This document shows positions 12,401 to 57,623 of a stretch of 64,000 bases of DNA, piece after piece. The notes beneath the pieces were generated by a model that was not told the DNA's origin, searched no databases, and saw nothing but the letters and a program-made list of their open reading frames with translations. The DNA comes from Serpula lacrymans var. lacrymans S7.9 (taxonomy: Eukaryota; Basidiomycota; Agaricomycetes; Boletales; Serpulaceae). The stretch's first letter is position 1; each line of letters starts with the position of its first letter. The DNA lies in the NCBI RefSeq assembly GCF_000218685.1, contig NW_006763290.1, positions 2,798,694 through 2,862,693 of the forward strand, read 5' to 3'. The position numbers were made by a program, and so were the translations under genes.

Positions 12401-12403
12401 TAG

Positions 12404-12816
12404 TGTTACGATACACAATTTTTGGACCTTTAAATTTCATCCTCCACTTTAACTTTCTTTTGTAGTTTTCACACACTATGCCATGTGGCACTTTCCATTT
12501 TGTTCAAACTCCACCTTCTCGTGCTGCGCTGACTTTCTTTATTTTTAGCTACAAGTATCTCACGCAGTGGAGCTGGTCACACAAGCTGTGCCCTATGACA
12601 TCATCAACCACTGCCTTCATCAACTGTATAGTACACATGTACAATTATCCTGTAGATGGATATAAAAACCAATAGATCAAGGAGACTCCTCAGTGAGTCC
12701 TCCTGTTGTTTACCCACAACTAACTTGGTCCTATCATAAGGGGTAACCACTCTCACTCACTTCACTGTAGCTTGTCTGAGTTGTGCGCCAGAGTATACAA
12801 ACTCTTGCTTGTTACA
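12404..12816 (+). repeat. 3' LTR of Gypsy A copy 1
   Basis: It runs TGTTACGATACACAA to TTGCTTGTTACA (413 bp). It differs from the 5' LTR at many positions by eye, so the insertion is not recent. Confidence 0.85.
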
Positions 12817-22359: not shown

Positions 22360-22364
22360 GTTGA

Positions 22365-22760
22365 TGTAACCAACAAGAGTTAGTTACTCTGGCGCACAAC
22401 TAGAACCAAATAGAGATGATGATGAGAGAGTGGTTATCCTTTAGACTTCAACAAGTTAGTTGTGAGGATACAACAGGAGGACTCGCTGAGGAGTCTCCTT
22501 GATCTATTGGGGTATATATACTACTACAGGTTTGTTTGTATATATGTACTATACAGTTAATGGAGGCAGTTGCTGATGATGTCTAAGGGTGTAGCCCGTG
22601 AGAGACTTGTATCTAAGATAGAAAGAAAAGCAGTGCAGCACGAGAAAGTAGAGTTTGAACAAATGGGAAAGTGCCACATGGCACAGAGTGTGTGAAAACT
22701 ACAGTAAAAGGTTAAAGAGGAGAATGAAATTTAAAGGTCCAAAAATGTGTTATCGTAACA
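22365..22760 (-). repeat. 3' LTR of Gypsy A copy 2
   Basis: A 396-bp LTR from TGTAACCAAC to ATCGTAACA. It shares subfamily differences with the LTR at 36148-36538, for example the ATACAAACAAACCTGTAG block and AACCTTTTACTGTAG on the complement, which supports that both belong to one element. Confidence 0.9.
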
Positions 22761-22779
22761 CTACCCCCCCCCCCCCCCA

Positions 22780-24217
22780 CAAGGCTCGACTTCCAGGCTC
22801 GACCAGATATCGGAGGTGGTAGTTAGATTTTTGGGCATATGTTGAAAAAGGGAATTAAAAAGTTTAGAATCCATGCCTCTAAGCTTCCTAGGAGCTGAGG
22901 GATTCTTAGAATAAAATTTGCAAACAGCGTTGCGGGAATTGTCCAGATGGGCTTCTGGTTCCCACATTCTGTCCTCGTCTCCATAGCCCTTCCAAAGGAC
23001 TAGGAATTCTAATTTTCCATGCTTCAAGCGTGCATCCACCACTCGTGTTTGACTTCAAATTCTCCTTCACCTTTCTGGGTGACTACAACCAGTCCGGGCC
23101 GGTCTACGTGTTGTCCCGGCAGCGGTCCTTTGTAGGGTTTTACCCGGCTAATGTTGACCGTGGGTACTACCCTCATTTTGTTTGGGAGTTCTAGCTCAAG
23201 TATGTTGGGTTTGACTTCCTTAATCTAGTAAGGCCCAATCCACTTTTCGGTCAGTTTTCTAGACTGCCAATCTTTTAATTTTAAGTGGTCGCTATCTAAC
23301 CAGACCAGGTTGCCGACCTTGTAGTCAGGGGCCTTAGAGCGTCTACGCTCTGCCCTGTCTTTTATCTGCTCTGCAGTTTTGAATAGCGCCTTGCACGTTT
23401 TGTCTAAAACAGATTTCATGTCCTTGACCACGTTCTCAGCAGTCTTGTTCTTGCTTTTGCCAGGTTCTACACCCATTCTGGGGAGGTATGATCTTGTCAC
23501 CTCAAATAGATATCCGGAGGTATTGCTTCAATTCCTGATTGAGCCTCTCTGTTTGTCCATCAGTCTGTGGATGGAACACCGTTGATAATTTGGGTTTGAT
23601 GCCCAGCATCCGGCATAATTCTTTTGTAAACTCGCTAGCAAATTGTGGTCCCCTATCGGAGATAACCATTTCCCGTAATCCATGGATAGACCATACAAAA
23701 TCCTTAAATAAGTCTGCTGTACCGGCGGCGGTAATAGTTTTATTGGTGGGAAGAAATACTACTTCTTTGGAGAAGCAATCTACTACCACCATTACTGAAT
23801 CATACCCGTTTGACTCAGGCAGATCTGTCATAAAATCAATCGATATATCTTGCCAGGGACCAGCTGGTATCGGACTTGGCATAAGTTTCCTGGCCGGTGG
23901 TTGATGTGAGTTTTTAGCCATGGCACATCTTAGACAGAATTTTACGTATTCCTTACGTCTTTGACCATGCCAGGCCACATGTAGTTTCTGGAGATCAACT
24001 CCATTGTTCATTGCGGGTGCCCAGCCACTGGAGTGTTGTGATGTCTATCTATTGCCTTGATCCTTGCAGACTCAGGCACATAGATTTTTGTCTTTAAAAC
24101 GGAAGAGCCCGGCTTCCCATAAATAATTTTCATTGCTGTCAAGGCGCGCCTTCTCTTCTGAGGAGATGTCTTTCTTGAAGACTTCCAGAAGATCAGAATC
24201 CTGCCCAATTCTAACAT
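22780..24217 (-). pseudogene. Integrase with chromodomain, Gypsy A copy 2
   Basis: The integrase would insert the cDNA. Visible parts are the core at 24011-23502 (ISIDFMTDLPESNGYDSVMV with the first Asp, VISDRGPQFASEFTKELCRM with the second Asp, DGQTERLNQELKQYL with the Glu) and the C-terminal SH3-like part at 23500-23225 (APDYKVGNLVWLDSDHLK). The chromodomain is at 23042-22780 (LKHGKLEFLVLWKGYGDED). The catalytic triad is kept, but stops and frame changes separate core, SH3-like part and chromodomain. Confidence 0.85.
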
Positions 24218-25245
24218 TGGCTACCCTTGATTTGTCTATCAGGGTCACACCTTTGTTATCATCTTCTATGCCGTTGGCATGATCCTCTTTTCTGGACAAA
24301 GTGTCCGCTTTCCCCATCAAAGTTCCCGGTTTATGAATTAATTTATAATTAAACCTGGACAAGTACACTGCGTAGCGAGCCTGTCTTTGGTTCAAGTCTC
24401 AGGCCGTCATAAAATACTCCAGATTTTTATGATTGGTCCAAATTTCAAATTGGTGCCTAGCACCTTCTAAGTAGTGCCGCCAGTGCTCTAAAGCTCTAAT
24501 GATGGCCAGCATCTCTTTATCGTAAATTTGATAGTTGCGCTCTGTGAGCAACAAACTATGTAATAAATAGGCACAAGGCCTCCAAAGATTGTCAGCGCAT
24601 TTAATTGATAAAAAAGCTCCAGTAGCAAAATCAGAAGAGTTGGTTTCTAGCCGGAACTCTTTGTCTAATTCTGGAAATGCTAATACGGGCTGTTGTAAAT
24701 GCCTGCTTAAGCTTATCAAAAGCTTCTTGTTCTTTGGCACCCCAGTGCCAAAAAATGTCTTTTTTTGTGAGATTGTTCAACGGTCTTGTTATTTTTGCAA
24801 AGTTTTCAATAAATATTCGGTAGAAACTGCCTAAGCCAAGGAAGGCCCTAACTCCTTTGACAAGAGTAGGTTCTGGCCAATCCAATATAGCTTGAACTTT
24901 CCCAGGATCCATCCTGATTCCGTTCTGGCCAATTATTATACCGAGGGAGTCTACTTCCTTCACTTTAAAATTACATCTTTCGGGTTTGACGAATAGGTCC
25001 CATTCCTGTAAGCGTTGAAGGACTTCTTGCACGATCCTGTCATGCTCAGCCTCATTGTCCGACTTCGTAAATATTAATAAATTGTCAATGTAAATGACAA
25101 CACAATTCTCCATATCTGCAAAGATCTCGTTCATCATGCTCTGGAAGGTTGCCAGTGAATTGGTCAACCCAAAGAACATAACGAGGGGCTCAAAGGATCC
25201 TCGGTGGCACGTGAACGCAGCCTTCCAAGCATCTTTTTCTCTGAT
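24072..25245 (-). pseudogene. RT (C-terminal part) and RNase H, Gypsy A copy 2
   Basis: RT copies RNA into DNA and RNase H removes the RNA. The frame 25179-24631 has MFFGLTNSLATFQSMM and the catalytic box as YIDN instead of the usual YxDD, so the second metal-binding Asp is replaced by Asn. RNase H follows at 24740-24399 (LETNSSDFATGAFLS, then ICDKEMLAIIRALEHW-like), and the linker with LIHKPGTLMGKADTLSR is at 24395-24072. The 24944-25245 part lies in a tract identical to copy 3. Confidence 0.85.
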
Positions 25246-26537
25246 TCATACATTATTGTACCCCCATCGGAGATCCATCTTTGTTAAGATCTTGGCACTA
25301 GCCAATTTGTCTATTAGCTGACTAATCAAAGGCAGCGGATACACATTTTTAACCGTGTACTCATTCAAGTAACAATAGTCCATAATCATACGCTTCTTAC
25401 CATCCTTTTTAGGAATGAAGAACACTGGGGATGTCATAGGGCTCTTGGAAGGTCTGATGTAACCCTTCCTAAGCTGTTTGTCTATGAAACTAGAAACCTC
25501 ATCTCTTTCTGGAGCAAAAAGTGGTATCATGAGTCCTTTTCTCGGTTTGAAGGTGTCCTTCAAATCTATAGCATGGTTCCAAGGCTTAGCCTCTGGGAAG
25601 TGCTCTGACTTATGTTTTGAAAAGACTTTGCAGAAGTCATGGTACCCGGGAGGTACCAGCCTCTTAATCTCTTTCTCAGGTTTTACCTTGTCATTGTCAT
25701 TATCGATCTTTTCTAAAGATCTGAGCTCATAAACGTGGCCAGTGTTTATCTTTTCAAGATGCTCAGTTTGACGGACGTGACTTGGCTTACCCAAGTTCTT
25801 ACACTCCTGAGGACAACGTGACAATGTGACAACCCCTGTCTGCCAGTCAATCTCAGGATTGTGTTTAAATAGCCAGGTCCAGCCTAAGATTAAATTAATA
25901 TTCCCTAGTTGGGTAGCTTCGGCAGTGACTCATTCTCTGTGTCCTTGGTACTCGACGACAAAAGAACATTTATGCGTAATACAGCCACCCACGTTAAGTG
26001 TACCGTCAATGTTATAGACGGGAATAGATACATCTAATTTTACAAGGGGGAGTCCAACTTGCTCCGCCCAGACCTGATCTATGAAGATGCTGTTTGTGCC
26101 TGAATTAAGCAGTGCGCTAGTTGGGTGTACTATGCCTTGGGCAAGGTTTTCCATGCCAACGTCTAAACAGATCTCCTTTTGGAATAAATATGTGTGCATC
26201 AACACACACCTTGGGATTTTGGGAAAGGGTGGCTCCGAAAAAGAAGAAGTATCGAATGAAACATGTTTTTCTATTTTATTTTTACCAAAATTAAGCACCC
26301 TATTGTTTGTCTCACCAGGGCCACGCTCCAGGGGAGACCCTGGTACAGTAATGGTATTGTAAGTATTTCTAGCATCAACTCTTTCATCATCTTGACCCTC
26401 TGAATTAGCGCTCAAAGCAGCTATATTGTCAGGTGGGTCCAAGACGAATCCACAGTCACAGCTTTGTATATAAATACATACTTCAGATAACAAATTGAGA
26501 AGTCTATTTACAAATTGGGGAGCCATCCCCTTCTTTC
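25246..26537 (-). pseudogene. Protease and RT N-terminal part, Gypsy A copy 2
   Basis: The protease frame (26526-25930) reads HPTSALLNSGTNSIFIDQVW, where the catalytic Asp of LLDSGA is Asn. The next frame (25824-25246) covers the linker and early RT (YIRPSKSPMTSPVFFIPKKD, then NEYTVKNVYPLPLISQLIDK) and ends at TGA (25246-25248) after GYNNV. The downstream reading IREKDAWKA suggests that the stop replaced Arg (CGA to TGA). Element E interrupts the frame at 26537, just upstream of MAPQFVN. Confidence 0.85.
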
Positions 26538-27320
26538 CATCAGGAAAAATGGGGGTAGCTATATATAGCTCTATAGCACTATAAGTACTTATAAAGCTAT
26601 TATAGTGGTCAAACCTGTTATAGAACCTCTGCCATCTATAAAGTCTTATATAGCTCTATAAATGCTCTTATAGATGTTGGAAATTGTTGTGTGGCTGATT
26701 GAAAAAAATTAACACAGACAGGATCTGAACTCTCAATCTGCTAGTCAGCTCTTGGGTGACTAAGCAACCTATAGCTACACATCACATTTATCCACTACAT
26801 CATGAGAGCTTATAAAATGTATCATACAGGTGTTATATATTGACCTTTCATGGACTTAGATTTATTTTTTTACTCATTGTCACTACTTATATTTGGATAA
26901 ATCATTATTCTTATTTTGTGAGTATCAGGGATACAAACTACTATTTCACTAATATAGGCTACATAATTGATTAATACTGGATGATTTATTAGCCCTTTTA
27001 AGCACCTTGAACTATATTATAACTATGACCTTTACAGCTATAGGAGCTATGTAGGCTGCTATAGGCTATAAGAGCACTTATAGTATCTTGCCTATAATAA
27101 TATACTTGACTCTAAACACTTTTGGCCTCTTTCTATTATTGAACAAGTTTATTAGATTAATCCAGAGTTTGAAGGAATTATAGATATTTCTCCCCTTGGT
27201 TAAACTTTTGCCTACTACTGAGCTATGATTACACTGATAGTACTATAGTTTCTATGAATGTATTTATATATATAGGTGGTGGCTATATAGCGCTATATAG
27301 CAAAAGGGTTTTTCCTGATG
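26538..27320 (-). mobile_element. Element E, copy 1 (783-bp MITE-like, inversion breakpoint)
   Basis: It starts CATCAGGAAAAA and ends TTTTTCCTGATG (12-bp perfect TIR, extended imperfectly by GCTATATAG). It is 783 bp, the same length as copy 2 at 38425-39207, and differs from it by only about three bases, all near one end. It is AT-rich, has no coding frame, and is dense in TATAGC/GCTATA palindromes. An internal tRNA-like stretch is described under copy 2. Its left flank is Gypsy A and its right flank is Copia RT, which cannot come from one insertion event. Confidence 0.85.
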
Positions 27321-28018
27321 ATTATGCATGTTGTCAACCTTTTTGGGTGTGCTGGGTGATTGTTTAGAGCTGTAGTTTGCACCTGGTTCTAGTGGTGTGG
27401 AAACTGGTTTTGCATCATTCAGCCCGAAGTATTCAACCATTGTGTCAATGTACGCCTTCTGGGATATGGACAGTGCATGTGATTCTCGTTTGTATTCGAT
27501 GCTGGATCCTAATAACAATTTTATGCTTTGTAGATCGGACACTTCATATTGTTTGGCTAGTTGTTCTTTGAGCAATTTAATGGTTTGTTTGTTATTTGCT
27601 GTTACAACAGTGTCATCAGTTAATACTGAGAATACGGCTGATTTGTTTGGTTTGTGGTAGTCAAACACTGTGTGATCAACCATTGATCTCATGAATCCTA
27701 TGTTACAGAGTGTTTTGTACCATTTGTGACCGGCTTGTTTTAACCTGTATAGGCTTTTTCTCAGCTTGCAAACTTTGTTCTTGTCTTCTGGTTTTAGATA
27801 TCCTGGTGGTGGTTTTATGTATACGTTCTCTTTCAATTCTGCATTGAGATAAGCATTTTTGACGTCCACTTGATGTATGTGCCATCCTTGACTTGCGGTG
27901 TTGGCTAGTACAGTTTTTACGGAAAGTAGTTTTGCAACAGCTGCAAATATTTCATTGAAGTCAATGTCTTTATGTTGTGCATAGCTCTTTGCCACCAGTT
28001 TCGCTGTCATGCACCAAA
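27321..28018 (-). pseudogene. Copia element 1: reverse transcriptase
   Basis: The frame reads KLVAKSYAQHKDIDFNEIFA, VDVKNAYLNAELKENVY, YRLKQAGHKWYKTL, TDDTVVTANN (the catalytic Asp pair kept) and KAYIDTMVEYFGLNDAKPVS. It stops at MHN next to element E. Its continuation VPYQEATGCLTWI is at 39208 on the plus strand, beyond the second E copy. This part is otherwise open, so damage is mostly structural: an insertion at its 5' end (28019-29824) and the inversion at its 3' end. Confidence 0.9.
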
Positions 28019-29824
28019 GTTGATTGGTAGCATGGACAGGTGTCAATAACAAAGTGAATATTCAAAAAGACTCGCCTTTGCGCCACACAGGCACAGTGTC
28101 GCATGGAATAGTAATTAATATTGCCTTTTTCAATCTTGTGGCTGATCAGCACCACCTCTATTAGGAAATCTAGTCGCGCTCACCTTTGCTTTCCATTCAG
28201 TACTTTCCGTGTTTTGGCATTTCGGCAAATTTCCGTGTTGCCACTGGCTACACATTGCATTGCGCCCTTGCCTTCATCGTTTCCCTTACTCCCCTTCCTT
28301 TGCCTAGCCCCACCATGGGCCCCTTCCTCTCCTTTTTATTCTCACCTGACGGTCGTTTCTGGATCCCCATTCTAATCCACCTCTTTGTCACCTCCAGCCT
28401 CCTCCTCCTCATCTTCTTTGCTCCCCCACCATTTCTGATGTCACCACTTCCTATCTGCTTCCGTCACCGATCTGTTGACTACCATGTGCCACTGCTGATA
28501 TCAGCAAAGCCCCGGTGGCCGGTCCAAATAGGGCAACAAGTCCATCTTCATGATGTTGATCTGCCATCATATACTATCAAAACATCAGTCGCTCGTCTTG
28601 CCTGGTTGGAGTGTGGGTGGGTAGTTTTTGAGCTGGAGAAGGTTCATCCCTTTGCGTTTCCCATGTTCATTGCTGTCCCATTCACTTGGGTACACTTATC
28701 TTTTATCCATTGTATTTGCTACAGCTACACCTATCACACGCTGCCTGGGACTCACTTGTTCCAAATTGGAACTACTCCTCTCCCTCCCTCGTTTGTCCAG
28801 GTGGTCCAACACAACCAGTCCATTGGTAAGGCCATAGAACCGTCGGATTTGGACTAGGTGGTGGACTGGTGGCTCCAGTTTTTTTTTTTTCAGCAGAACA
28901 TTCATTTGCAGTGCAATTATTTTGATTTTTGAATCATTTTTATGGACACATATTTTTTAGAATGCCTGACTGACAATAAAGGAACTGTGTTGATACTAAT
29001 AGTGTTTTGCCTTGCCCTTTTTTTACTGCATCTTCCCATGACATCATGACTTTCCTGCTCTCTTTTTGCTATTGGACTTTACTTTATGGCTGTACAAACC
29101 AGTGACATTACTCACAGCATTCATTGTTCTATCCCTTTCTTTTCCTTTTTTTGACAATCTTATCCTGTACTACCTATGCAGGATTTGTCAGCGTACATTC
29201 CTTCCTTCATGTCCTTTCTCATTCTTTTTGCACAGCTATACTGTGCATAGCCTACTTTTCTTTTACTATATAAACCCCTATATTCTACCTTGTAAAAAAA
29301 ACAAAAAAAACAAGAAATCCAATCCAGACTTCTTCTCTAAATCTCAAGTTCACTGCTCTGCTACTTGTTATTCAGTGTGGTCACAACACTTCCCACTGTT
29401 ACTACTATTGACTGCTGTCATTGTCACTCGTCACTTTTGAAAGTGATTATCATTTTTTTTGGTTAGAGTCCTTCTGAGCACTACAGTTTGTGCATCAGGA
29501 GCCTGCTATCACTGGGAACCTTGTTAGCTTGTCATTCTCAAATCTACCTTGTGCTAAGATTAGCAAGGTAGTGCTCATCCTATATTCATCTCAAAAAGCC
29601 CCTATCTTCTATAGTACAACTATCCCTCCTCCTCAAAACCCACACCCATACATCTCTGGGTTTTACTTTGAAGGATCGTCATACATACCACCCCACGAAC
29701 AACCAGAGCACCCACTGTTCTAGGAGGCAAAACCCATAAACAAGTTCCGTGGAATCTGGGAGGATTGTGTGTTAGTTTGTTTTGTGTGTGGTTTTCTAAC
29801 AACAGTTCTCATCATCGACATTGC
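28019..29824 (+). mobile_element. 1.8-kb unidentified insertion inside Copia RT
   Basis: The Copia frame reads YKA at 29824 and resumes with AKLVAKSY at 28018, so about 1.8 kb has been inserted between adjacent codons. At most 2-3 bases (GC) are duplicated. The ends (TGTCATGCACC on the left, CGACATT on the right) give only a weak inverted match. It holds a 223-codon plus-strand frame, a T-rich stretch and no known transposase motif. Confidence 0.6.
28186..28857 (+). CDS. Uncharacterised 223-residue open frame carried by the insertion
   Basis: I do not recognise the family. The frame is the longest in the window without resemblance to a transposon protein. Residues about 25-90 are strongly hydrophobic with Leu-rich runs (LFVTSSLLLLIFF), consistent with one or two membrane segments. 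The middle part (PRWPVQIGQQVHLHDVDLPS, then TSVARLAWLECGWVVFELEK) looks like a compact soluble domain. A second Met at residue 43 (MGPFLSFLF) could be the real start. No intron signals were needed. It could be host DNA captured by a transposon or a chance frame in pyrimidine-rich DNA; the latter is quite possible. Confidence 0.25.
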   Translation: MLSIQYFPCFGISANFRVATGYTLHCALAFIVSLTPLPLPSPTMGPFLSFLFSPDGRFWIPILIHLFVTSSLLLLIFFAPPPFLMSPLPICFRHRSVDYHVPLLISAKPRWPVQIGQQVHLHDVDLPSYTIKTSVARLAWLECGWVVFELEKVHPFAFPMFIAVPFTWVHLSFIHCICYSYTYHTLPGTHLFQIGTTPLPPSFVQVVQHNQSIGKAIEPSDLD

Positions 29825-30078
29825 CTTATATCACGTGATATTGCTATTTTTGCTGTGCTTGGTTCTGAGGATGAAGTGTGATTTGATTATGTTAGTGTTA
29901 AGTGGCGGCTCTACTATGTTCCAGGTGTGTAATTGCTCTATGGCTGTTATCTCGTTGCTTATTGTTTGGCACCATTTCTTAGTGTTTTGTCCTTTTAGGG
30001 CTTGTGCAATGGTTGGCGAGTTAACATCATATGATGCAAGTGCTTGATGGATGATGAGAGCAAACTCTTTATCTTTGT

Positions 30079-30276
30079 TATCATAACACAATGGGATCCG
30101 CACCCGTGTACAGTGATTTTGGACCTTCTGGGCATGCAACCAATCAGTATGCTTTCCAAGTACGCCTTGGTAGCTTAGTTGGTAAAAAGCACCAGACCAT
30201 GAAAGCTGAAGTCCCAGGTTCAAGCCCTGGCCAATGCATGTTTTCTCATACTATAAACAAATGTCATAATTTGTCA
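30079..30276 (+). mobile_element. tRNA-bearing short element S, copy 1 (SINE-like)
   Basis: A 198-bp unit runs from TATCATAACACAATGGG to CATAATTTGTCA, flanked by the 5-bp duplication TTTGT (30074-30078 and 30277-30281). It is homologous over its full length to 41461-41656 on the other strand. The tRNA-like part begins about 85 bases inside the unit rather than at its 5' end, which is unusual for a classical SINE. It has no A-rich tail. Confidence 0.75.
30164..30237 (+). tRNA. tRNA-like sequence within element S copy 1
   Basis: It has a D-arm-like TAGCTTAGTTGGTAAAAAGC (box A like) and a perfect T arm (CCAGG, TTCAAGC, CCTGG; box B like). The acceptor ends GCCTTGG and CCAATGC pair only partly, and the anticodon arm is irregular. 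It is probably a derived pol III promoter, not a working tRNA. Confidence 0.5.
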
Positions 30277-31604
30277 TTTGTTGTGAGTGTTTTGTGTTGC
30301 CTCATCTGCATCTCTATTTATCCATGCAGTTGTTGCTCTTTCACCATGGTTTAGAGCAGCATAGTAACCAGGAGGAGGTTGTGTATGTTGGAGACATTTG
30401 TTGGGTGGATTGCTTGGTTCTGCAGGTTCAGTGGGTTCTGGTTGATTTGATGAGGTTGGTTCATTTGGTGAGTCATTTGTGTCATTTTATATTTTTTGTG
30501 TTCAGCATTGACATGGTTGTTAGTCATATTCTCCCTTTCAAGCATAGTAATGCTGGGTAAGTCTTCTTTGTCAGGTTTGAGTTGGACTTCATGTTCAACA
30601 CCCTTTGCTGTGTTTGCTGAAGCCTACAAATGTAGCTTCCTGGGCCTTCGCTTCAAATTTTGGTGCATTTTCTGTTTTTATAAAAGTTATGCATCCAAAT
30701 CTGTGAACATTTGATAGATTGGGTTTCTTTTTATTCACCACTTCATATGGCATTTTTTCAAGTAGGGCTTTAGTTGGAGGTCTGTTTTTCAACCATGTAG
30801 CATGACTTATCACTTCTGCCCATTGTTTTAGGTAGATTTCCTTTAATCAATATGGCACAGGGGTGTTCGACAATTGTGCGGTTCAGTAATTTGGCTATCC
30901 CATATTGTTTGGGTGTGTTGTGAACTGTCCGTTCATGATTGATTCCAAGTTTATCTAGGTAATTCTCAAATTCTTTGCCTACAAATTCTCCACCACCATC
31001 TAATCTGAATCGTTTTATTTTGCAGCTGTCATATTGTGTATTCAGGAATTTCACAAATTTTTGAAATGCAGGTAATGCTTCATCTTTTACATTCATGAAG
31101 TAGACTGTAGATCCTCATGAAAAGTCATCTGTAAATAATATATAGTATTGTTTTTGTCCCATTGTTTCTATTTGTGCAGGTCCCCAAACATCTGAATGGA
31201 TGTGTTTGCCATATATTTTTGCTTTGGTATATGTATTTTTTGGGACTGGTAGTCTGGACATTTTTGCTTTGACGCATGATTCACAGAATTCCTGTTCACT
31301 TGATTTGTCCAGGGATATTACATCTACTATTCCTTTGGATACGAGCATCTTTGTGATTGGGTAAGCCATGCAGCCCATGCATTTATGTAGGTATGTCAGT
31401 GACATTTCTCTTGTCTTTGTGGCTGCATTTGCTGCTTGCTCTTTTGCAGTTATGCTGTATAAGCCACCTGACATAGGTACTTTGGCTATGATGGTACCTT
31501 GAGATGTTGTAATGGTGTATGATCTCTTGGTCATTAGCAACAATATTCTGGCCTTATCAATCTGGCTTGTGGCAATGAGTAATTGACTCATGTTCGGTAC
31601 ATAT

Positions 31605-32031
31605 TGCTACAATTGACATACCAGCACCTACTTATGCTTCACTTTTTGTACTTCTACTTTTCATTTTCCAAGTCACATGACTGATCATTAACCATTAACT
31701 TTACTTTACGATTTCGGACTTTTCATAGTCACATGACCAATTATGTGACACATCACCTGACCAGTGTCTAGACTCATCATGTGACCAGTCACATGCTAGA
31801 CATCGGACTTTGAACTTCATTTACAACTGTATAGTACCTCATGTATTTTAGTATATATACTGGAGCAATACATGGGGAGGGACTCAGCAAGTCCTCTTCT
31901 AGTGTATACCAACATTAGTATGACAATCTCCCTCCTTTGATAGGTTGTACACTTCCTTTTCCTCCACTGAGTTGTTGTTGTTGTTATTGTGCTCCAGTAC
32001 CCCAAGACTGTGTCTTGTTGGTGCTGTCACA
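31605..32031 (+). mobile_element. Solo LTR, family B, nested in Copia element 1
   Basis: It runs TGCTACAATTGACAT to GTGCTGTCACA (427 bp) with a perfect duplication CATAT (31600-31604 and 32032-32036). It contains a TATA-like TATATATACTGG and the CACATG motif cluster. It interrupts Copia between protease and pre-integrase region. Confidence 0.9.
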
Positions 32032-32070
32032 CATATAGGGTGTCTTTTAGCATGACCTTGGTTTGCTTAT

Positions 32071-32484
32071 TGTAACAACCAAGAGTTTGTATACTCTGGC
32101 GCACAACTCAGACAAGCAGTAGTGAAGTGAGTGAGAGTGGTTACCCCTTATGATAGGACCAAGTTAGTTGTGGGTAAAAAACAGGAGGACTTGCTAAGGA
32201 GTCTCCTTGATCTATTGGGGTATATATACTACTACAGGTTGTTTGTACACATGTACTATACAGTTTGATGAAGGCAGTGGCTGATGATGTCATGGGGCAC
32301 AGCCCGTGTGACCAGCTCCACTGCGTGGGATACTTGTAGCTAAAAATAAAGAAAGGCAGCACAGCAGAAAAAGGTGGAGTTTGAACAAAATGGAAAGTGC
32401 CGCATGGCACAGTGTGTGAAAACCACAGAAGAAAGTTAAAGAGGAGAATGAAATTTAAAGGTCCGGAAATTGTGTATCGTAACA
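32071..32484 (-). mobile_element. Solo LTR, Gypsy family A, nested in Copia element 1
   Basis: It runs TGTAACAACCAAGAG to GTATCGTAACA (414 bp), flanked by a perfect CTTAT duplication (32066-32070 and 32485-32489). It lies only 40 bp from the B-family solo LTR in the same Copia element. Confidence 0.92.
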
Positions 32485-32489
32485 CTTAT

Positions 32490-33530
32490 GGCCGTTTGGT
32501 AGTGCTATTTGGACATCTCATTTGCCTGTTGCTTCAATGTTATGTCTGTCTGCTATGCTGATGGATCAAGGTGTGATAGTAGTGAATGTCTTGAATTTAG
32601 ACTTGTCAGGACAGAAGTGTGATATAGCACCAGAGTTGATGACAACGTCACTGTGGTCTTTCTCTGTTGAGGCATTAGGTGTTATTTTGAATGATGAGAA
32701 GGCATATTTTTGTTCATCAGGTGGGTATTGAGCTGTGTTTGCTCTTTCCTTTGTCTTTTGTTGACAAGGGCATTGGCCTTCTTTTCCACCCCCTTTTCTC
32801 CAGCATTTGTCTATGGTATGTCCTTCCCTCTTGCAGTTGGGGTTGGAGCATTTTTGTTTGACCTTTGCTGTTCTAGTTTTCCTTGCTTCTTTTGGATATT
32901 TAAGGCTGACTTGTTTGATTGTTTACTGGTAGTCCAAAAATCAGCCTCTTCTTTGATGTGAGCTATTAACTCTCACAATATGAGGGGACTTTTGGATACT
33001 CGAGCAGCAGCTGTAATTGAGGAAATGATTCATCAGTAGGATATGGGGAGAGATGACATTATCATTGCACTGAAGTTTTTGTTTTTGGCAGGTGCACCCA
33101 TTCTAGCCAATTCTTCTCAAAGTTTCAGCATTTGGGATATGTGACTCTTAGTGTCATCATCTTCTTTGCATTGCATGTCCTGTAGCCATTTTAGGGTGTT
33201 AATTTGTACAATCTCACTTTTGTTCTTGTGCATGTGGCATATTTCTGTCCATGCATCTGCAGCAGTTGGTAGATTTTGGATTTGGTAGTGGACACTTCCA
33301 TGGATAGTTGCATATATCTGTTGCAGTATCATTGCTTCCTTTTGCAGATACATGTGCTTTAAGGGAGAGCTGTTGGAATAATTATGCAACCATGTAGGTG
33401 ATGTAGGAGGCCTTTGACTAATATAGTCATGGTAGTCTGAGACTTCCAGAACATTCAATTTGATTCCATCCTCATTTAGTTTTGGTATAGTGTATATACC
33501 AGATGTGGCTGTCAGAGCAGTGGTATTTGC
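32490..33530 (-). pseudogene. Copia element 1: gag and protease
   Basis: The gag start lies just after LTR C. The frame 33458-33117 reads NVLEVSDYHDYISQ, LQQIYATIHGSVHYQI and AADAWTEICHMHKNKSEIVQ, a UBN2-type gag. A zinc-knuckle-like CKREGHTIDKCWRK follows near 32800. The protease at about 32640-32490 reads VINSGAISHFCPDKSKF, where the expected catalytic Asp-Ser-Gly is Asn-Ser-Gly. Stops separate the parts. Confidence 0.75.
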
Positions 33531-33753
33531 TGTGGTTATAACCTGTGAGCTGGAAAACTAGGCAAAAGTAATATACTGGAAAACTATTAATGAGATGTTT
33601 CTATAGTGTCTGCATAACTGTTGCTCACATGTTAACTAAAGCTAAGGCAGTTAATCATGTGATATGATGTTTCTATGTGAGTGGCGGTGTAGATTTGTAA
33701 TGAAGAAAGCGGAAATCTGGTGAAGTTCTATATATGATTATTATGTTCTAACA
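33531..33753 (-). repeat. LTR C: 5' LTR of Copia element 1, abutting Copia element 2
   Basis: About 223 bp; on the minus strand it starts TGTTAGAACATAATAATC and ends CAGGTTATAACCACA. It is homologous to the LTR at 39880-40098. On its outer side the minus-strand sequence ends in GGGAG, like the polypurine tract GAAGGGGAG before the LTR at 39880. So the same LTR also sits where the 3' LTR of Copia element 2 should be. Confidence 0.75.
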
Positions 33754-35800
33754 CTCCCTGTGTAAACTTTTTAGGCCACTGAGATAAGATCCAGCTCATC
33801 CTGAGAGAGACAAATATTGATGTGAAAACAGCTATCTGTAATCCTGAAGATTTGCTTAGGTTCCTGAGTATTACTTGAAGGTCCTGATAAAATAGCTTCT
33901 GGGTCCAGAGCATCAATTGCAAAATAATGGCTATAGTCAATTACATTAAGTATATCCTTTTTTATAATATCCTAGAGTAATATGACTAAGTAGAACAGCA
34001 GCAGGTGGCTTGTCTACTTGTAGAAGAGTGTTAAACAGAATATCAATTTTTACTAGTTGTCTTCTAAACTGGGTCCAAAGTCTTGCCTTATACATTCCAT
34101 GGCAGCTAGGGGGTGACTTGCCAGACAAGCACGGTTCACAGACAGGATCAGGAACAGCCTTGAAATCCAGTGTAAGCCCAGTAACCAGATCTCTCTGTAT
34201 CAGTCTCTTGACATCACCATGATGGTGGTGAGCCAATCTGCAATGCCAGAGCGTCAAATCAAGTGGTATAGTTGCAAATTCAACACAAGCAGCAGTAGAT
34301 CCATCAAGGAATGCTGCATTGTTGTCATTGATAGCTGTAGTGAATAGGAGAGCATTGCCACACATAAAAGACATGGAATAAGACGAGATGATGATATTGA
34401 AGCCACTTTCAAGAGCTAAATACAAGACTGACAGGAGATTATTTCAAAGATCTGGCACATAGAGCACTATAAAGAATTCCACAGCCCTTGCCACTTTGCC
34501 ATTGATCACAGGATTAAACACCACAAAACCAAAACCAGTTGAATAGACGACAGTGTGATCAGCCAGCTTGATTGGCACTCGATATGGGGTATAGTGGTGA
34601 ACTCAATAACAATGAGGTGTCATATGAGAAGTGGTGCTTGTGTCTGTATTTCAATCAATGTTAGCATCAACTTGGAGAGGAAAGTGACGATCAGAGGGAT
34701 AAATGGAATAAAGACTTGCATTTTGAGCTGATTCAGTGACCACAGTAAAGGAATTGGCATTGTTGGGCAAAAATTTGCACTGCTGAGAGTTATTCTGAGC
34801 ATTGTTGGAGCTTGCCTGAGCCTTATTGCCATGCTTGTAGTGATTAAAGTACCCTCCACCACCTGTTTGTGACTAGCAATGTATCTATGGCATTTATCCT
34901 GGGTATGATCAAGTAAACCACGGAAATCACATTGAACATGAGTAGAGGTAGTGGATTGATTGCAATGATGGCAGATAGGATGGGTGCAGGTGCTATTGAC
35001 AGTGGTAGATGAAGAATGCAAGGCAGAATAAACTTCAGCACAATGACAACAATTAGTCTCTTCAGCAGGAAAAGCAACCCTGAGCTGGGTCTGATTAAGG
35101 TACTTAGAAGCAGTAGAGACAAAGTGAAGTGGGCATATTCATCAGAACGTGTCCTAATCATGGCCATGCATGTCAGTTTATTGTCCAATTTGGCTAATAT
35201 AAAGCAAGTAGGACAGAGATTTTGCCTTCATCAATCCTGGTCACACGAGACTGCAGGGATTTGTTTTCTTTTTTTCTGATAGAGAAGAAGTTGTTATAGG
35301 CATTGAATCTTGTCCCAGGCTTCTTAGTGATGTGCACAATAGCCAGTTTCTCCCAAATCTTGACAGGATCATGAATAATACTATCAAGATAGATACACTG
35401 CTTTTTGGTGACATTGAGGTATAATACACCATCAGCCTTTTCAGCTCCCAACTTCCATTTTTTTTGTGCTTCAGCATCACAGGGCACTTTTCAGTGCCAG
35501 AAACAAGCCTCCACAATCCCTTGGTCATCAACTAAGCTTGCATTTCACTACTCCACTGGGGGTAGTTAGTGCCAGACAAGGGATTGAGCTTGGGATCAGA
35601 GTCAGACATGATTGGTGTTGTATAAGAAGATAGAGCAAAAATAAATGATGTAGGAGATGGATATAGGTGATAGAACAGTGGCAAAGACAATGGGGAATAG
35701 TAGGAGGCGAGCAAATAAGATGGTGAGGTGGTGGAGAGGGGATATGGAGAGGGTCCAAAAGCATAAGGATAGGTCCAATTATGGTCCACAAAACATCCAA
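33754..35800 (-). pseudogene. Copia element 2: gag and start of integrase (truncated)
   Basis: On the minus strand gag starts near 35610 (MSDSDPKLNPLSGTNYPQWS) and continues with LYLNVTKKQCIYLDSIIHDP, then VTRIDEGKISVLLA. A Cys/His-rich stretch follows near 34950-34900. The pre-integrase region at 34425-33946 reads LDLTLWHCRLAHHHHGDVKR and DPVCEPCLSGKSPP. The frame fades soon after VDKPPAAVLLSHITLGYYKK, so most of integrase and all of RT and RNase H are missing. It is a different Copia lineage from element 1. No 5' LTR was found to its right. Confidence 0.75.
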
Positions 35801-35859
35801 AAAGTGATCTAAGAGGATGATAGGGCTTCCTAGTGCTGCAACAGGGTTACACCTGTGTT

Positions 35860-36054
35860 TGTTACAATTAACATACCAGCAACCTACTTGTGCTTTACTT
35901 TTCTATATTTTTACTTTGCATTTTTCAAGTCATGTGACTGATCACATGATCATTTACTCCTCCTTTGATAGGTTGTACACTTCCTTTCCCTTCATTGAGT
36001 GTTGTTGTGTTGTGCTCCAGTGCCCCAAGATAGTATCTTGTTGGTGTTGTCACA
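35860..36054 (+). mobile_element. Solo LTR, family B, with internal deletion
   Basis: Both ends are intact (TGTTACAATTAAC to GTGTTGTCACA) and the flanks are a perfect GTGTT duplication (35855-35859 and 36055-36059). Only 195 bp remain, against about 400-427 bp in the other copies, because the middle is deleted. Confidence 0.85.
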
Positions 36055-36147
36055 GTGTTCCCCTTTTAATACTAAATACTACACTAATATTAACAGAGAC
36101 ATTGCCTTGAGACAGTGTTGGTTGACAAGGCTTATATATAAGTCAAC

Positions 36148-36538
36148 TGTTACAATAATACATTTTTGGACCTTTAAATTTCATTCTCCTCTTTAACCTT
36201 TTACTGTAGTTTTCACACTCCGTGCCATATGGCACTTTCCCTTTTGTTCAAACTCCACTTTCTCGTGCTGCACTGCCTTTCTTTCTATTTTAGATACAAG
36301 TCTCTCACGCAGTGGAGCTGGTCACACGGGCTGCGCCCTCGGACATCATCAGCCCCTGCCTCCATCAACTGTATAGTACATATATACAAACAAACCTGTA
36401 GTAGTATATATACCCCAACAGATCAAGGAGACTCCTTACAACTAACTTGTTGAAGCCTAAAGGGTAACCACTCCCTCATCATCCTCTCTATAGCTTGTCT
36501 GAGTTGTGCGCCAGAGTAACAAACTCTTGGTTGTTACA
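36148..36538 (+). repeat. 5' LTR of Gypsy A copy 2
   Basis: A 391-bp LTR with TATA-like TATATATACCCC. It has lost about 25 bp of the CAGCGAGTCCTCCTGTTGT block seen in sister LTRs. Its outer flank TCAAC (36143-36147) pairs with GTTGA at 22360-22364 as an inverted target duplication. Confidence 0.9.
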
Positions 36539-37047
36539 TTAGGACTTGCTCTGTTTACTCTCTTGCACATTGTGCAAACCCAGACCCCAGAGTTAAGGGG
36601 ATAGTGTTATTGTTTAGGGATATCCCATATAGCAGAAGGGTGCACTCTTTGTGACGGCCCCGTAGTGCTCTGGGAGACAGGACAAACACATTTTTTTTGA
36701 TACACGGCCCCCAGTGTTAAGGGGAGTACCTTGGCTCAGCAGTTGGTGTGGAACCACTGTTGATTAGTTTTAAAATACAAAAACCTCTTCTTCAAATACC
36801 TCTGACCAGGCCGGGCACTTGCGTCTGCCAGTTGGAGAAGGGTTGACAGCTTAACAAGCGGACCACCCCCTGACAACCGTTCAGACCAGGGTTTCCCACA
36901 CCCACCCCCTATATACCCCCCAAATACTATAGTGTGGGTAATTGGAGATTGTGATCTGATACTCAGCTAGGAAGAGGTTAATCTGCAGTTAGCAAGCGGG
37001 GACCCCCAGTTACCTTTTTTTTACATTACCAAAGAGAACAAGTCGAC

Positions 37048-38091
37048 ATGACGTCGCAACCAGATATGAACAGTCTTCTGCACAGCATGCGTGCGCAGAT
37101 TCAGGCATTGACAAGTCAGCTCGCTAAGATTCAGGCTGCCCCAGCAGCGGAACCTACAGTTGAGCGAAAGTTCAACAAGAAAGTCGAGATCATTGCTGAC
37201 CCCGGTGCTTTTGAAGGAGACCGGGCTCAATTTGCCAAATGGTGGATCAAGCTCCAAATTTGGATCAAAGCAAACTGGGATGTGTTTGCTGATGATTTTG
37301 AGATAGCAACTGCCGTACTATCTTGACTAAAAGGACCTGTGGCAGGTTGATACGCCCAAGTTAGAATGCAGGAGTGCTACACTGTGAGAGTGTGGCCTAC
37401 CTGGGATGATCTCAAAGTCAAGATTGAAAAATACTTCAGACCCCAAGCTGAGCATGACTGGGCACATCAGCAAATCCGTACCTTCAAACAAGGAAACATG
37501 AGGACGGACAACTTTGTTACCTGGTTCCTGGCCCTCTCCATCCAAGGGGGTCTAGGAAATGAACATGTAGTAGAGTTGTTAAGGGGCAATGTATCACCGG
37601 CCATTGCACGACAACTTTACATACAAGATATGCGGAGCAAGAACCTTGCAGCAGCTGCTGAAGAGGTTCAAAAAATTGGTAGGGCCATAGAGCTCTACAC
37701 TATGCAGTTCGGTGGCGGGACCACCACCAAAAACAACTATTCCCAGAGGAGCCCTGGTTCATCAAACCAAAAACAAAATCACTCTCATGGGTTCCAACCA
37801 TTTGGGTTGCAACCAGGATGGGGTGCTCCTATGGATATCAGCGCGGTCCAGGGCGGACAAAAGTGCAGATTCACCTGCTTCAGCTGTGGGCAGGAGGGGC
37901 ACATGGCCCGAGATTGTACAAATGGAGCGCGGGCCGCTCACCAAAAAAATAACCAAGGACGCCAGGCGCGCCAATTAGAAGCAGAGAAACTGTACGATCG
38001 GCTCCAGACTCTAGCCAGTTGTTTGTACGACGAGATCCGAGCTTTTTTCTATGACCAACATGTCAATGAAATGAAAGCTCAGGGAAAAGAG
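37048..38091 (+). pseudogene. Gag of Gypsy A copy 2
   Basis: It starts MTSQPDMNSLLHSMRAQI. The capsid region has FAKWWIKLQIWIKANWDVF, and a TGA at 37324-37326 after ATAVLS interrupts it, at the same codon as in copy 3; copy 1 reads Arg there. The frame resumes at 37366 with KIEKYFRPQAEHDWAHQQIR, and ends with an intact CCHC knuckle (CFSCGQEGHMARDC) and a basic, Gln-rich tail. Apart from the stop it is well preserved. Confidence 0.85.
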
Positions 38092-38318
38092 TGATAAAAT
38101 TGGATATTGACCAGACCAGGGATTGAACCTGGAACCTTCTGGATACATGCCAGCTGCTCTACCAATTGAGCTATATGGCCAAGGTTATACAATATAGGAT
38201 CTTAAACATGACATGCAACCATGGATGTCTTACACAGAATAGCTGCTGCATACTGGGCTGGCTTACAAATCAGAGGTATTATCCTATGGAGTATTGGTAT
38301 GTCAGAGTATATTCTAAC
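38092..38318 (-). mobile_element. tRNA-bearing short element, copy 3 (divergent)
   Basis: A 227-bp insertion in the gag-pol spacer with duplication AAAGAG (38086-38091 and 38319-38324). On the minus strand it ends AATTTTATCA, like the AATTTGTCA end of element S, and its tRNA-like part is likewise internal with a leader of about 140 bases. The rest does not align well with S, so it is a related but distinct family. Confidence 0.65.
38109..38180 (-). tRNA. tRNA-like sequence, Thr(UGU)-like fold
   Basis: These 72 bases fold into a near-complete cloverleaf: acceptor GGCCATA with TCTGGTC (mostly paired), D stem GCTC/GAGC around AATTGGTA, anticodon stem GCTGG with CCAGA (one mismatch), and a perfect T arm (CCAGG, TTCAATC, CCTGG). 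The loop CATGTAT would place UGU as anticodon, but position 33 is A instead of U. It lies within a mobile insertion, so a pseudo-tRNA or pol III promoter is more likely than a functional tRNA. Confidence 0.5.
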
Positions 38319-38424
38319 AAAGAGTTTGGAGCTTAGGTCACTTGGGTGCCTTCACTCCTCGAAACAATGAAGTAAACCACAACAAAGTGGCCCTGCTCCG
38401 GGGTGTTGCAAGAGCAATAATGAA

Positions 38425-39207
38425 CATCAGGAAAAACCCTTTTGCTATATAGCGCTATATAGCCACCACCTATATATATAAATACATTCATAGAAACTAT
38501 AGTACTATCAGTGTAATCATAGCTCAGTAGTAGGCAAAAGTTTAACCAAGGGGAGAAATATCTATAATTCCTTCAAACTCTGGATTAATCTAATAAACTT
38601 GTTCAATAATAGAAAGAGGCCAAAAGTGTTTAGAGTCAAGTATATTATTATAGGCAAGATACTATAAGTGCTCTTATAGCCTATAGCAGCCTACATAGCT
38701 CCTATAGCTGTAAAGGTCATAGTTATAATATAGTTCAAGGTGCTTAAAAGGGCTAATAAATCATCCAGTATTAATCAATTATGTAGCCTATATTAGTGAA
38801 ATAGTAGTTTGTATCCCTGATACTCACAAAATAAGAATAATGATTTATCCAAATATAAGTAGTGACAATGAGTAAAAAAATAAATCTAAGTCCATGAAAG
38901 GTCAATATATAACACCTGTATGATACATTTTATAAGCTCTCATGATGTAGTGGATAAATGTGATGTGTAGCTATAGGTTGCTTAGTCACCCAAGAGCTGA
39001 CTAGCAGATTGAGAGTTCAGATCCTGTCTGTGTTAATTTTTTTCAATCAGCCACACAACAATTTCCAACATCTATAAGAGCATTTATAGAGCTATATAAG
39101 ACTTTATAGATGGCAGAGGTTCTATAACAGGTTTGACCACTATAATAGCTTTATAAGTACTTATAGTGCTATAGAGCTCTATATAGCTACCCCCGTTTTT
39201 CCTGATG
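38425..39207 (+). mobile_element. Element E, copy 2 (other inversion breakpoint)
   Basis: Reverse complement of 26538-27320, same length (783 bp), about three differences. Its left flank is Gypsy A and its right flank is Copia RNase H. A tRNA-like stretch at about 38937-39035 has a box A-like GATGTAGTGGATAAATG and a box B-like GAGTTCAGATCCTG about 70 bases apart, without good stems. The flanks after restoring the inversion suggest a short 2-3 bp target duplication (AT at the Copia site). Confidence 0.85.
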
Positions 39208-39879
39208 ATGTACCCTATCAGGAAGCAACTGGATGCTTGACCTGGATATCCCTCAGCACACGACCTGATGTTGCATTTGCTACAAACACATTAGCTCAGT
39301 TCACTCAGAACCCAGGTAAAAGCCACTAGGAAGCAGTAAAAAGAATCATACACTATCTGAAAGGAACCCGTGAACTATCCCTCAAAAATGGTGATGTACA
39401 TGGGACCATAACATCATACACTGATGCAGATTATGCATCCCAAACTCACTGTCACTCCCTATTCGGACACATATCATTCTTTGCTGGACTGCCAATCACC
39501 TGGGGCACCAATAAACAACCCATAATTGCACTATTGAGTATCAAAGCGGAATACATTGCAACCACTCATACACTAAAGGATATATTTTGGTTGCAGAGTA
39601 TAATTGGCAAAATCAAATCTCCAATCAACAAACCAACAATCCTATATTGCAACAACCAAGGAGCAATAGCTCTGTTGAAGAATAATAAATTTCATCCCAG
39701 AACAAAACATATAGACATACACTACCATTTTATCCAAGAAGCGGTTGACAATAACAGGATCACATTATCTTACTGTCCCATAGACGATATGATTGCAGAC
39801 ATCTTCACCAAGGCACTCCCTAGGGTAACACACAAGAAGTTTGTCAATATAATAGGCCTATACTATAATTGAAGGGGAG
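39208..39879 (+). pseudogene. Copia element 1: RNase H and 3' end
   Basis: It continues the Copia RT frame broken at 27321: VPYQEATGCLTWISLSTRPD, then one stop after NPGKSH, then YTDADYASQTHCHSLFGHIS. The long open part 39534-39872 has IKAEYIATTHTLKDIFWLQS, TILYCNNQGAIALLKNN, FHPRTKHIDIHYHFIQE and the standard Copia C-terminus MIADIFTKALP. The purine tract GAAGGGGAG precedes the LTR. Confidence 0.9.
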
Positions 39880-40098
39880 TGTTAAAACAGAACAATCATA
39901 CATAGAACTTCACCAGATTTCTGCTTTCTTGATTACAAATTTACACAGCCACTCACATAGAAATGTCACATCACATGGTTAACTGTCTTAGCTTTAGCAA
40001 GCCAGTTAATATGTGAGTAACAATATGCAGACACTATAGAAACATCTTATTAATAGTTCTCCAGTATATTACTTCTGTCTAGTTTGCCAGCTCACAGG
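39880..40098 (+). repeat. 3' LTR of Copia element 1 (LTR C, end truncated)
   Basis: It starts TGTTAAAACAGAACAATC and aligns with the reverse complement of 33531-33753 to CAGCTCACAGG. The final dozen bases (TTATAACCACA in the other copy) are replaced by unrelated sequence. Confidence 0.75.
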
Positions 40099-52092: not shown

Positions 52093-52507
52093 TGTAACAA
52101 CCAAGATTTTGTTACTCTGGCACACAACTCAGACAAGCTATAGAGAGGATGATGAGGGAGTGGTTACCCTTTAGGCTTCAACAAGTTAGTTGTGAGGATA
52201 CAACAGGAGGACTCGCTGAGGAGTCTCCTTGATCTATTGGGGTATATATACTACTACAGGTTTGTTTGTACATATGTACTATACAGTTGATGAAGGTAGT
52301 GGCTGATGATGTCCGAGGGCGCAGCCCGTGTGACCAGCTCCACTGCATGAGAGACCTGTATCTAAAATAGAAAGAAAGGCAGTGCAGCACGAGAAAGTGG
52401 AGTTTGAACAAAATGGAAAGTGCCACATGGCACAATGTGAGAAAACTACAGTAAAAGGTTAAAGAGGAGAATGAAAATTAACGGTCCAAAAATGTGTTAT
52501 CGTAACA
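52093..52507 (-). repeat. 3' LTR of Gypsy A copy 3
   Basis: 415 bp, TGTAACAACCAAGATTTTG to GTTATCGTAACA; next to it on the minus strand is the purine tract AGAGGGGGGTAG. Confidence 0.95.
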
Positions 52508-52517
52508 CTACCCCCCT

Positions 52518-56335: not shown

Positions 56336-56404
56336 TTTGTTGTGGTTTACTTCATTGTTTTGAGGAGCAAAGGCACCAAAGTGACCTAAGCTCCGAACTC
56401 TTTT

Positions 56405-57448: not shown

Positions 57449-57623
57449 GTCAACTTGTTTGCTTTGTAATGTAAAGTAAAAAACGTAACAGGGGGTCCCC
57501 GCTTCCTATCTGCAGATCTACCTCTTCCTTGCTGGGTATCGGATCTCAATCTCCGACTACCCACACTATAGTATTTGAAATTGTATATAAAAGGTATTTG
57601 TAATAAACCCTGGTCCGAACGGT

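What the first reader, a model, noticed from the sequence alone, without database searches (positions are those of the whole stretch)
26538..39207. An 11.1-kb inversion between two inverted copies of a 783-bp element, proven by split retrotransposons
E copy 1 (26538-27320) and copy 2 (38425-39207) are inverted, equal in length and almost identical. Outside and inside them lie mismatched halves: Gypsy A 3' half | E | Copia RT (minus) ... Gypsy A 5' half (plus) | E | Copia RNase H. Flipping 27321-38424 joins both Gypsy halves (AGCAATAATG to GAAAGAAGG) and both Copia halves (NMHN to VPYQEATG). The two outer Gypsy flanks, GTTGA at 22360-22364 and TCAAC at 36143-36147, then become one 5-bp direct duplication. 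That is independent confirmation. A small non-autonomous element thus served as substrate for ectopic recombination that split two retrotransposons.
Basis: seen in the sequence. Interest (0 to 1): 0.92.

Follow-up and report, generated by a model that had tools for sequence, protein, structure and literature searches.

The report
Inversion between two converted transposon copies
In a fungus, probably the dry-rot species or a close relative, two nearby and oppositely oriented copies of a small transposon appear to have recombined and flipped the 11 kb between them, cutting two retrotransposons in half, and a wider comparison suggests that such copies often overwrite each other's sequence when they lie close together.

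Summary
Two inverted 783-bp copies of element E (26538-27320, 38425-39207; 2 mismatches) bound an 11,104-bp segment whose ends are swapped halves of one Gypsy and one Copia retrotransposon. The Gypsy 5-bp duplication (GTTGA) fits the flipped order.

New here: E is an ~800-bp non-autonomous DNA transposon (110 genomic matches to its 5' end). E1 and E2 are 99.7% identical; other copies average 94%. Their two mismatches lie in the first 29 bp. Among 74 copies (2,701 pairs), 9 of 19 pairs within 50 kb share an identical run of 276-754 bp, against 0 of 2,682 others. In 6 of 11 linked pairs checked, the partner is not the closest copy outside the tract. This points to distance-limited gene conversion. 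E1/E2 alone has crossover flanks among six readable converted inverted pairs.

Inversion by recombination between MITEs is known (DAIBAM). The main open rival is a misoriented assembly segment; only reads can exclude it.

The parts
26538..27320 (+). E copy 1: 783-bp non-autonomous TIR element (ends CATCAGGAAAAA... / ...TTTTTCCTGATG), left inversion breakpoint
38425..39207 (-). E copy 2, inverted, 2 mismatches to copy 1 (element positions 13 and 29), right inversion breakpoint
27321..38424 (.). Inverted segment between the E copies (11,104 bp), made largely of nested retroelement pieces; not searched exhaustively for host genes
22365..26537 (-). Gypsy A 3' half (pol and 3' LTR 22365-22763); its inner end maps to 56298 of the uninterrupted copy 52093-59754
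   Evidence: RVT_1 and rve
36148..38424 (+). Gypsy A 5' half (5' LTR 36148-36538, gag with zinc knuckle); reaches 56299 of the same copy plus 2 extra bases (E's target duplication)
   Evidence: zf-CCHC
22360..22364 (+). GTTGA, outer flank of the Gypsy A 3' LTR; one half of the 5-bp target duplication
36143..36147 (-). TCAAC on the + strand (GTTGA when flipped), outer flank of the Gypsy A 5' LTR
27321..33758 (-). Copia 5' part: 5' LTR 33542-33758, gag_pre-integrs ORF 31115-31606, RVT_2 ORF 27264-28061 (its frame runs 57 bp into E1); holds later insertions
39208..40098 (+).
   Evidence: the ORF 39330-39872 itself had no Pfam hit
52093..59754 (-). Gypsy A copy 3, uninterrupted at the breakpoint: the yardstick for the Gypsy join
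7999..12816 (+). More distant Gypsy copy, also uninterrupted at the breakpoint (within 3 bp)

Best explanation
E is a high-copy, about 800-bp non-autonomous DNA transposon. One copy inserted in a Gypsy element and another, in opposite orientation, in a Copia element about 12 kb away. The two copies later paired. Homologous repair converted at least 754 of their 783 bp to one sequence, and a crossover within that tract inverted the 11.1 kb between them, splitting both retrotransposons. Shown: the swapped halves, the crossed duplications, the near-identity, and a genome-wide link of such identity to distance under 50 kb. Inferred: that conversion and crossover were one event, that the host's homologous recombination did it, and that the inversion exists in the organism and not only in the assembly.
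For: Both halves of Gypsy A meet base to base on copy 3, and the Copia halves do so on 5 of 10 relatives. The outer Gypsy flanks are GTTGA and TCAAC. E's 2-bp duplications are missing in place; crossed, one is exact (AT/AT) and one has one of two bases (TC/TT). E1 and E2 share 10 variants found in none of 38 other copies, yet their only two mismatches lie in the first 29 bp (about 0.005 under uniform placement), and in that stretch the partners rank 55th and 52nd of 72 in similarity. Genome-wide, 9 of 19 E pairs within 50 kb have an identical run of at least 276 bp against 0 of 2,682 other pairs; the mean run of the 19 is 312 against a mean of 83 and a maximum of 149 in 10,000 permutations. 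Control: the flanks of converted copy L029 are contiguous in other copies of the repeat it sits in, with exactly a 2-bp overlap at 22 places (counted), so an E insertion without inversion looks different.
Against: No reads or second strain were available, and the assembly has N runs (100 N at 42628-42727; another 100 N near converted copy L024). The crossed E duplication at the Gypsy site is imperfect. The Copia LTR flanks match at 4 of 5 bases (GGGAG/GGAAG). The two Gypsy A LTRs are 91.9% identical, but the 5' LTR is closer to both LTRs of copy 3 (94.6-94.9%), which is not what a simple single-element history predicts. Mismatch clustering is not significant for L028/L128 (0.09), L029/L035 (0.14), L087/L122 (0.17) and L023/L032 (0.82), and for L044/L100, L087/L122 and L023/L032 the partner stays the closest copy outside the tract (first or second for L029/L035), so some linked identity may be local transposition or older conversion.
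Confidence: 0.72

Rival explanations
1. The segment between the E copies is misoriented in the assembly; in the organism both retrotransposons carry an E insertion but are not split.
Against: There is no N run at either E. A 783-bp repeat is short against ordinary read pairs (general knowledge; the sequencing method is not known to me), and its flanks differ by about 8% or more from their relatives. The wider conversion pattern does not depend on this one join.
Confidence: 0.15
2. The near-identity comes from local transposition: one E copy is a recent daughter of the other, and recombination then inverted the segment.
For: Local hopping would also favour linked copies (recalled). Three linked pairs look related over their full length (L044/L100, L087/L122, L023/L032), and four pairs show no significant clustering of mismatches.
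Against: A daughter copy should differ evenly along its length. In E1/E2 the mismatches cluster (0.005), as in L036/L042 (0 of 5,000 trials), L039/L040 (0.0002), L044/L100 (0.0016) and L033/L119 (0.0044). Outside the tract the partner ranks 32 and 3 of 72 for L036/L042, 21 and 40 of 73 for L039/L040, 36 and 12 of 73 for L033/L119.
Confidence: 0.1
3. The inversion was made by breakage and end joining, or by an aberrant transposition using E ends, not by homologous recombination within E.
For: Transposon ends can cause inversions (recalled).
Against: Both breakpoints keep a complete E and target sites with no loss or extra bases on the closest relatives, as expected for crossover inside the repeat. 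No E transposase was found, though only 2 loci were looked at.
Confidence: 0.03

Closest known systems
DAIBAM MITE inversions, Drosophila virilis group (PMC6278893: listing, abstract and passages seen)
   Same: A small non-autonomous element at the breakpoints; ectopic recombination between oppositely oriented copies inverts the segment between. The abstract says DAIBAM was involved in eight of nine inversions.
   Different: Those are chromosomal inversions compared between species. This one is 11.1 kb in a fungus, unverified by reads, and is read from split retrotransposons and a conversion tract.
Galileo inversions, Drosophila buzzatii (Delprat et al. 2009, seen only as cited in PMC6278893)
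   Same: Ectopic recombination between transposon copies; exchanged target duplications as the signature (this signature is recalled, not read).
   Different: A different element and host; those inversions are much larger (recalled).
Transposable element-mediated rearrangements in human genomes (PMC9675761: abstract and passages seen)
   Same: All TE-mediated inversions there had TEs in opposite orientation, and 73% had breakpoints consistent with homologous recombination; size about 2.5 kb in the passage seen.
   Different: Alu and LINE-1 in humans. No conversion tract analysis was in the passages seen.
Distance-dependent ectopic gene conversion between paralogs, Drosophila (PMC3924832: passages seen)
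   Same: Conversion falls with physical distance; palindromic pairs such as Hsp70 and Amylase convert.
   Different: Gene duplicates, not a dispersed transposon family. Here the fall is from 9 of 19 pairs within 50 kb to 0 of 2,682 others.

Membership tests
MITE / non-autonomous TIR DNA transposon | Terminal inverted repeats | tested here: met
   CATCAGGAAAAA at both ends; 110 matches to the 22-bp 5' end with up to 2 mismatches, 0 for the control pattern read backwards
MITE / non-autonomous TIR DNA transposon | Fixed-length target-site duplication | tested here: met
   2 bp in 39 of 59 full copies, permutation mean 4.7; exact 2-bp overlap of the L029 flanks at 22 other places
MITE / non-autonomous TIR DNA transposon | Short, no coding capacity, high copy number | tested here: met
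   Full copies about 780-810 bp; no listed ORF of 150 aa or more lies inside either copy, two only run into the ends of E1; 110 places match the 5' end, at least 8 of them only distant relatives
MITE / non-autonomous TIR DNA transposon | Related autonomous transposase source, hence superfamily | tested here: inconclusive
   Two loci with long sequence after an E-like 5' end (L135, L136) showed no transposase that I could recognise by eye; no family search of them was run
Inversion by ectopic recombination between TEs | Same element, opposite orientation, at both breakpoints | tested here: met
Inversion by ectopic recombination between TEs | Target duplications and flanking sequence exchanged between the two copies | tested here: met
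   Gypsy and Copia halves crossed; E duplications AT/AT exact, TC/TT one of two bases
Inversion by ectopic recombination between TEs | Ancestral order seen in another strain or species | not testable with these tools
   The own genome is stated to have no relatives held
Ectopic gene conversion | Tract of identity with background divergence outside it | tested here: met
   6 of 11 linked pairs checked: E1/E2, L020/L024, L028/L128, L036/L042, L039/L040, L033/L119 (the first three with only 29, 86 and 28 sites outside). Not met for L044/L100, L087/L122, L023/L032 and doubtful for L029/L035, where the partner is also first or second outside; L078/L079 has only 5 sites outside

The most novel reading that the evidence does not exclude
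In this fungus, dispersed copies of one MITE family frequently overwrite each other by ectopic gene conversion when they lie within about 50 kb, mostly without crossover, and now and then resolve as an inversion. The family would then be a built-in, countable record of crossover against non-crossover outcomes, and the 11.1-kb segment here, bounded by repeats identical over 754 bp, may still be flipping.
Probability: 0.5. Interest if true: 0.65.

Novelty: new member of a known kind. Interest (0 to 1): 0.5.

Why it matters
Here two disrupted retrotransposons, several target duplications and a conversion tract fix a TE-mediated inversion at base level, and the whole element family gives a background to measure it against. 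A sharp distance limit of conversion would bear on how repeats keep their identity, and thus their power to rearrange, in fungal genomes, and on the dating of transposon copies by divergence, which conversion would mislead for linked copies. An inverted pair identical over 754 bp is also a candidate for recurrent, polymorphic inversion that a simple PCR could show.

Tried and rejected
Segmental duplication as the cause of near-identical linked copies: BLAST of the flanks (mostly 200-500 bp) of 17 of the 20 pairs within 60 kb (the three involving E1 or E2 were left out) gave hits for L023/L032 only, not in register with the element's edges. For E1/E2 the flanks are Gypsy and Copia, which differ. 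That the two Gypsy halves come from different elements: BLAST gave 82% between the LTRs; in a multiple alignment, gaps left out, they are 91.9% identical, like the 3' LTR to copy 3 (90.4-91.6%) but less than the 5' LTR to copy 3 (94.6-94.9%), so LTR identity alone does not settle it; the base-exact join and the 5-bp duplication do so better. Relics of old family polymorphism as the source of the two E1/E2 mismatches: at position 13 E2 alone differs (38 of 38 other copies have E1's base), and at position 29 none of the 38 has E1's base (34 have E2's), so both are private changes, lying outside the converted tract or made after it. Autonomous partner of E: two loci with E-like 5' ends gave ORFs that look like retroelement proteins, not an assignable transposase (judged by eye); not pursued. 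Inversion in the other converted inverted pairs: L039/L040 keep both own duplications, L020, L028 and L036 keep their own on one copy, and L029 has contiguous flanks in other copies, so these five look like conversion without crossover; L044/L100 is uninformative. A 2-bp match can be chance (1 in 16). Host: RPB2 gave 4,929 hits of which the best 120 were listed, the best named ones Marasmius, Mycena and Agrocybe at 93-95%, the best unnamed 97%; a 182-aa ORF gave two hits, both Serpula lacrymans (S7.3, S7.9), 86-88% identity over 16-19% of the query. I take the host as Serpula lacrymans or a close relative; this is inference from thin evidence. Excess of inverted pairs: 7 of the 9 long-run pairs are inverted against 4 of the other 10 within 50 kb (Fisher p 0.17); not significant.

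Limits of the sample: 100 of 110 pattern matches were listed, so 10 were not seen, and 2 of the 100 listed were not fetched. 74 copies of at least 600 bp were compared: E1, E2, 38 first picked by likeness to E1 and 34 from the pattern list; shorter pieces were dropped. Distances depend on the assembly. Literature searches showed no paper on conversion between linked MITEs in Serpula among the listings seen; many subscription papers are not held, so this is no proof of absence.
Full report
What was checked. The window lies at G000:C1:2798694-2862693 of a 42.6-Mb assembly in 29 contigs. The finder of inverted repeats gives the same pair as the longest in 26300-39400.

Swapped halves. I mapped each half separately onto uninterrupted relatives and did not rebuild any element. 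The Gypsy piece that ends at E1 reaches base 56298 of copy 3, and the piece that ends at E2 begins at 56299, with two extra bases next to E2; on a more distant copy they end at 10075 and 10070, 3 bp short of expectation. The pieces carry RVT_1 and rve on one side and gag with a zinc knuckle on the other. The outer LTR flanks are GTTGA and, in the inverted half, TCAAC. The LTRs of this element are 91.9% identical where aligned; the 5' LTR is somewhat closer to copy 3, 94.6-94.9%. For Copia, the RT piece (RVT_2) and the piece right of E2 are neighbours in the genome's other Copia elements. Of 10 distinct relatives that matched both pieces (12 loci, two pairs of them overlapping), 5 (L050, L060, L061, L066, L067) leave exactly the spacing expected once 2 bp are subtracted, 3 (L062, L063, L064) are off by 13, 18 and 2 bp, and 2 (L065, L069) have larger indels (arithmetic). 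The Copia LTRs are at 33542-33758 and 39875-40098, 87% identical, with possible 5-bp flanks GGGAG and GGAAG.

What E is. 110 genomic places match its first 22 bp with up to 2 mismatches and none match the control pattern; at least 8 of the places fetched are only distant relatives. Full copies run about 780-810 bp, share the ends CATCAGGAAAAA/TTTTTCCTGATG with few changes and make 2-bp target duplications of varied sequence (39 of 59 full copies against 4.7 expected). A clean case is L029: the 500 bp on either side match other copies of one repeat, and at 22 places the two matches overlap by exactly 2 bp (counted; each search listed its best places only). No autonomous partner or superfamily could be named.

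Crossed duplications. In the present order E1 is flanked by TC and AT, and E2 (in element orientation) by AT and TT. Neither copy has its own duplication. Crossed, AT pairs with AT and TC with TT, so the Copia site is exact and the Gypsy site has one change.

Conversion. E1 and E2 share 10 variants absent from 38 other copies, so the common sequence is an old, private one; yet they differ at only 2 sites, both in the first 29 bp, each private to one copy. With uniform placement that clustering has a probability of about 0.005. I compared 74 copies of at least 600 bp. Of 2,701 pairs, the nine longest identical runs (276-754 bp) all join copies on one contig 2.8-46.9 kb apart; seven are inverted and two direct. 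By distance: 9 of 19 pairs within 50 kb have such a run; 0 of 13 at 50-100 kb, 0 of 37 at 100-250 kb, 0 of 192 at 250 kb-1 Mb, 0 of 259 beyond, and 0 of 2,181 on different contigs. Shuffling copies among positions 10,000 times never reached the observed mean run of 312 (permutation mean 83, maximum 149).

Tract tests. I checked 11 linked pairs (the nine, plus L033/L119 and L023/L032) for how the partner ranks outside the longest run. It is not the closest copy for E1/E2 (55, 52 of 72), L020/L024 (24, 22 of 72), L028/L128 (54, 58 of 72), L036/L042 (32, 3 of 72), L039/L040 (21, 40 of 73) and L033/L119 (36, 12 of 73); the first three leave only 28-86 sites. It is still the closest for L044/L100, L087/L122 and L023/L032, first or second for L029/L035, and L078/L079 leaves 5 sites. 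Mismatches cluster more than uniform placement predicts for E1/E2, L020/L024 (0.035), L078/L079 (0.013), L036/L042, L039/L040, L044/L100 and L033/L119, but not for L028/L128, L029/L035, L087/L122 and L023/L032. Tract conversion explains the first groups; the rest may be older conversion or local copying.

Crossover or not. Among the seven converted inverted pairs, E1/E2 alone has lost both own duplications and gained a crossed one. L039/L040 keep both, L020, L028 and L036 keep theirs on one copy (the partner being truncated or changed), L029/L035 is shown uninverted by relatives, and L044/L100 cannot be read. That is one crossover among six readable pairs, a count too small for a rate and one that rests on 2-bp matches for four of them.

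Mechanism. The simplest course is a break in one E, repair from the nearby inverted copy, conversion of nearly the whole element, and a crossover that inverts the 11.1 kb. The unconverted first 29 bp lie at the border with unlike DNA, where pairing ends. That conversion and crossover were one event is inference.

Artefact. An assembler faced with two repeats identical over 754 bp could misorient the segment, and every sequence argument here would then hold just as well. N runs exist, one 3.4 kb from E2. I give this 0.15. The genome-wide pattern is less easily an artefact: the nine pairs show graded divergence (1 to 28 mismatches) and tracts in different parts of the element. Still, the 50-kb limit is near the size of large-insert clones (recalled), so a finishing effect should be tested on a long-read assembly.

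Known context. Inversions through a MITE are described for DAIBAM in Drosophila (PMC6278893, abstract and passages); the human TE-mediated inversions of one study lay between opposite TEs and 73% were consistent with homologous recombination (PMC9675761, abstract and passages); and conversion between paralogs falls with distance (PMC3924832, passages). Serpula is reported as rich in Gypsy and Copia for its genome size (PMC4905642, passages), and a table seen in part lists MITEs in the Boletales compared, S. lacrymans S7.3 among them (PMC5689174, passages). The event is therefore a new member of a known kind; the distance-limited conversion within one transposon family is the part most worth following.

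Noticed in passing
window 42628-42727, flanks 42426-42627 and 42734-43158: A 100-N run with near-palindromic DNA on both sides (about 79% and 86% self-complementary), perhaps why the assembly broke there.
   Followed up: no
window 30077-30276 (+) and 41461-41658 (-): A 200-bp inverted pair, 94.5% identical, each holding a tRNA-like match: probably a tRNA-derived SINE family, one copy inside and one outside the inversion. The 41557-42105 ORF over one copy had two hits, both Serpula proteins.
   Followed up: partly
window 38093-38318: A stretch in Gypsy A without a match in copy 3 that carries a tRNA-Thr gene-like sequence (38107-38181, minus): perhaps an insertion of another tRNA-bearing element.
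   Followed up: no
window 28002-28060: A 59-bp stretch at the far end of the Copia RT query matches dozens of genomic places at 88-100% (best candidates only): probably the end of a very abundant repeat inserted in the Copia element.
   Followed up: no
L082, L088, L092, L098, L111, L124, L125, L126: Eight E-like 5' ends match E only over about the first 116-142 bp at 76-80% identity: a second subfamily or a longer relative of E.
   Followed up: partly
L078 and L079 (C1:1953355 and 1985630): A direct pair 32 kb apart with one mismatch in 706 aligned sites, the strongest direct-orientation case; a crossover there would delete the interval.
   Followed up: partly
window 1433-1843, 15213-15623, 32071-32486: LTRs of the Gypsy family with no internal region seen next to them: apparently solo LTRs, 81-86% like the Gypsy A 5' LTR.
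   Followed up: no
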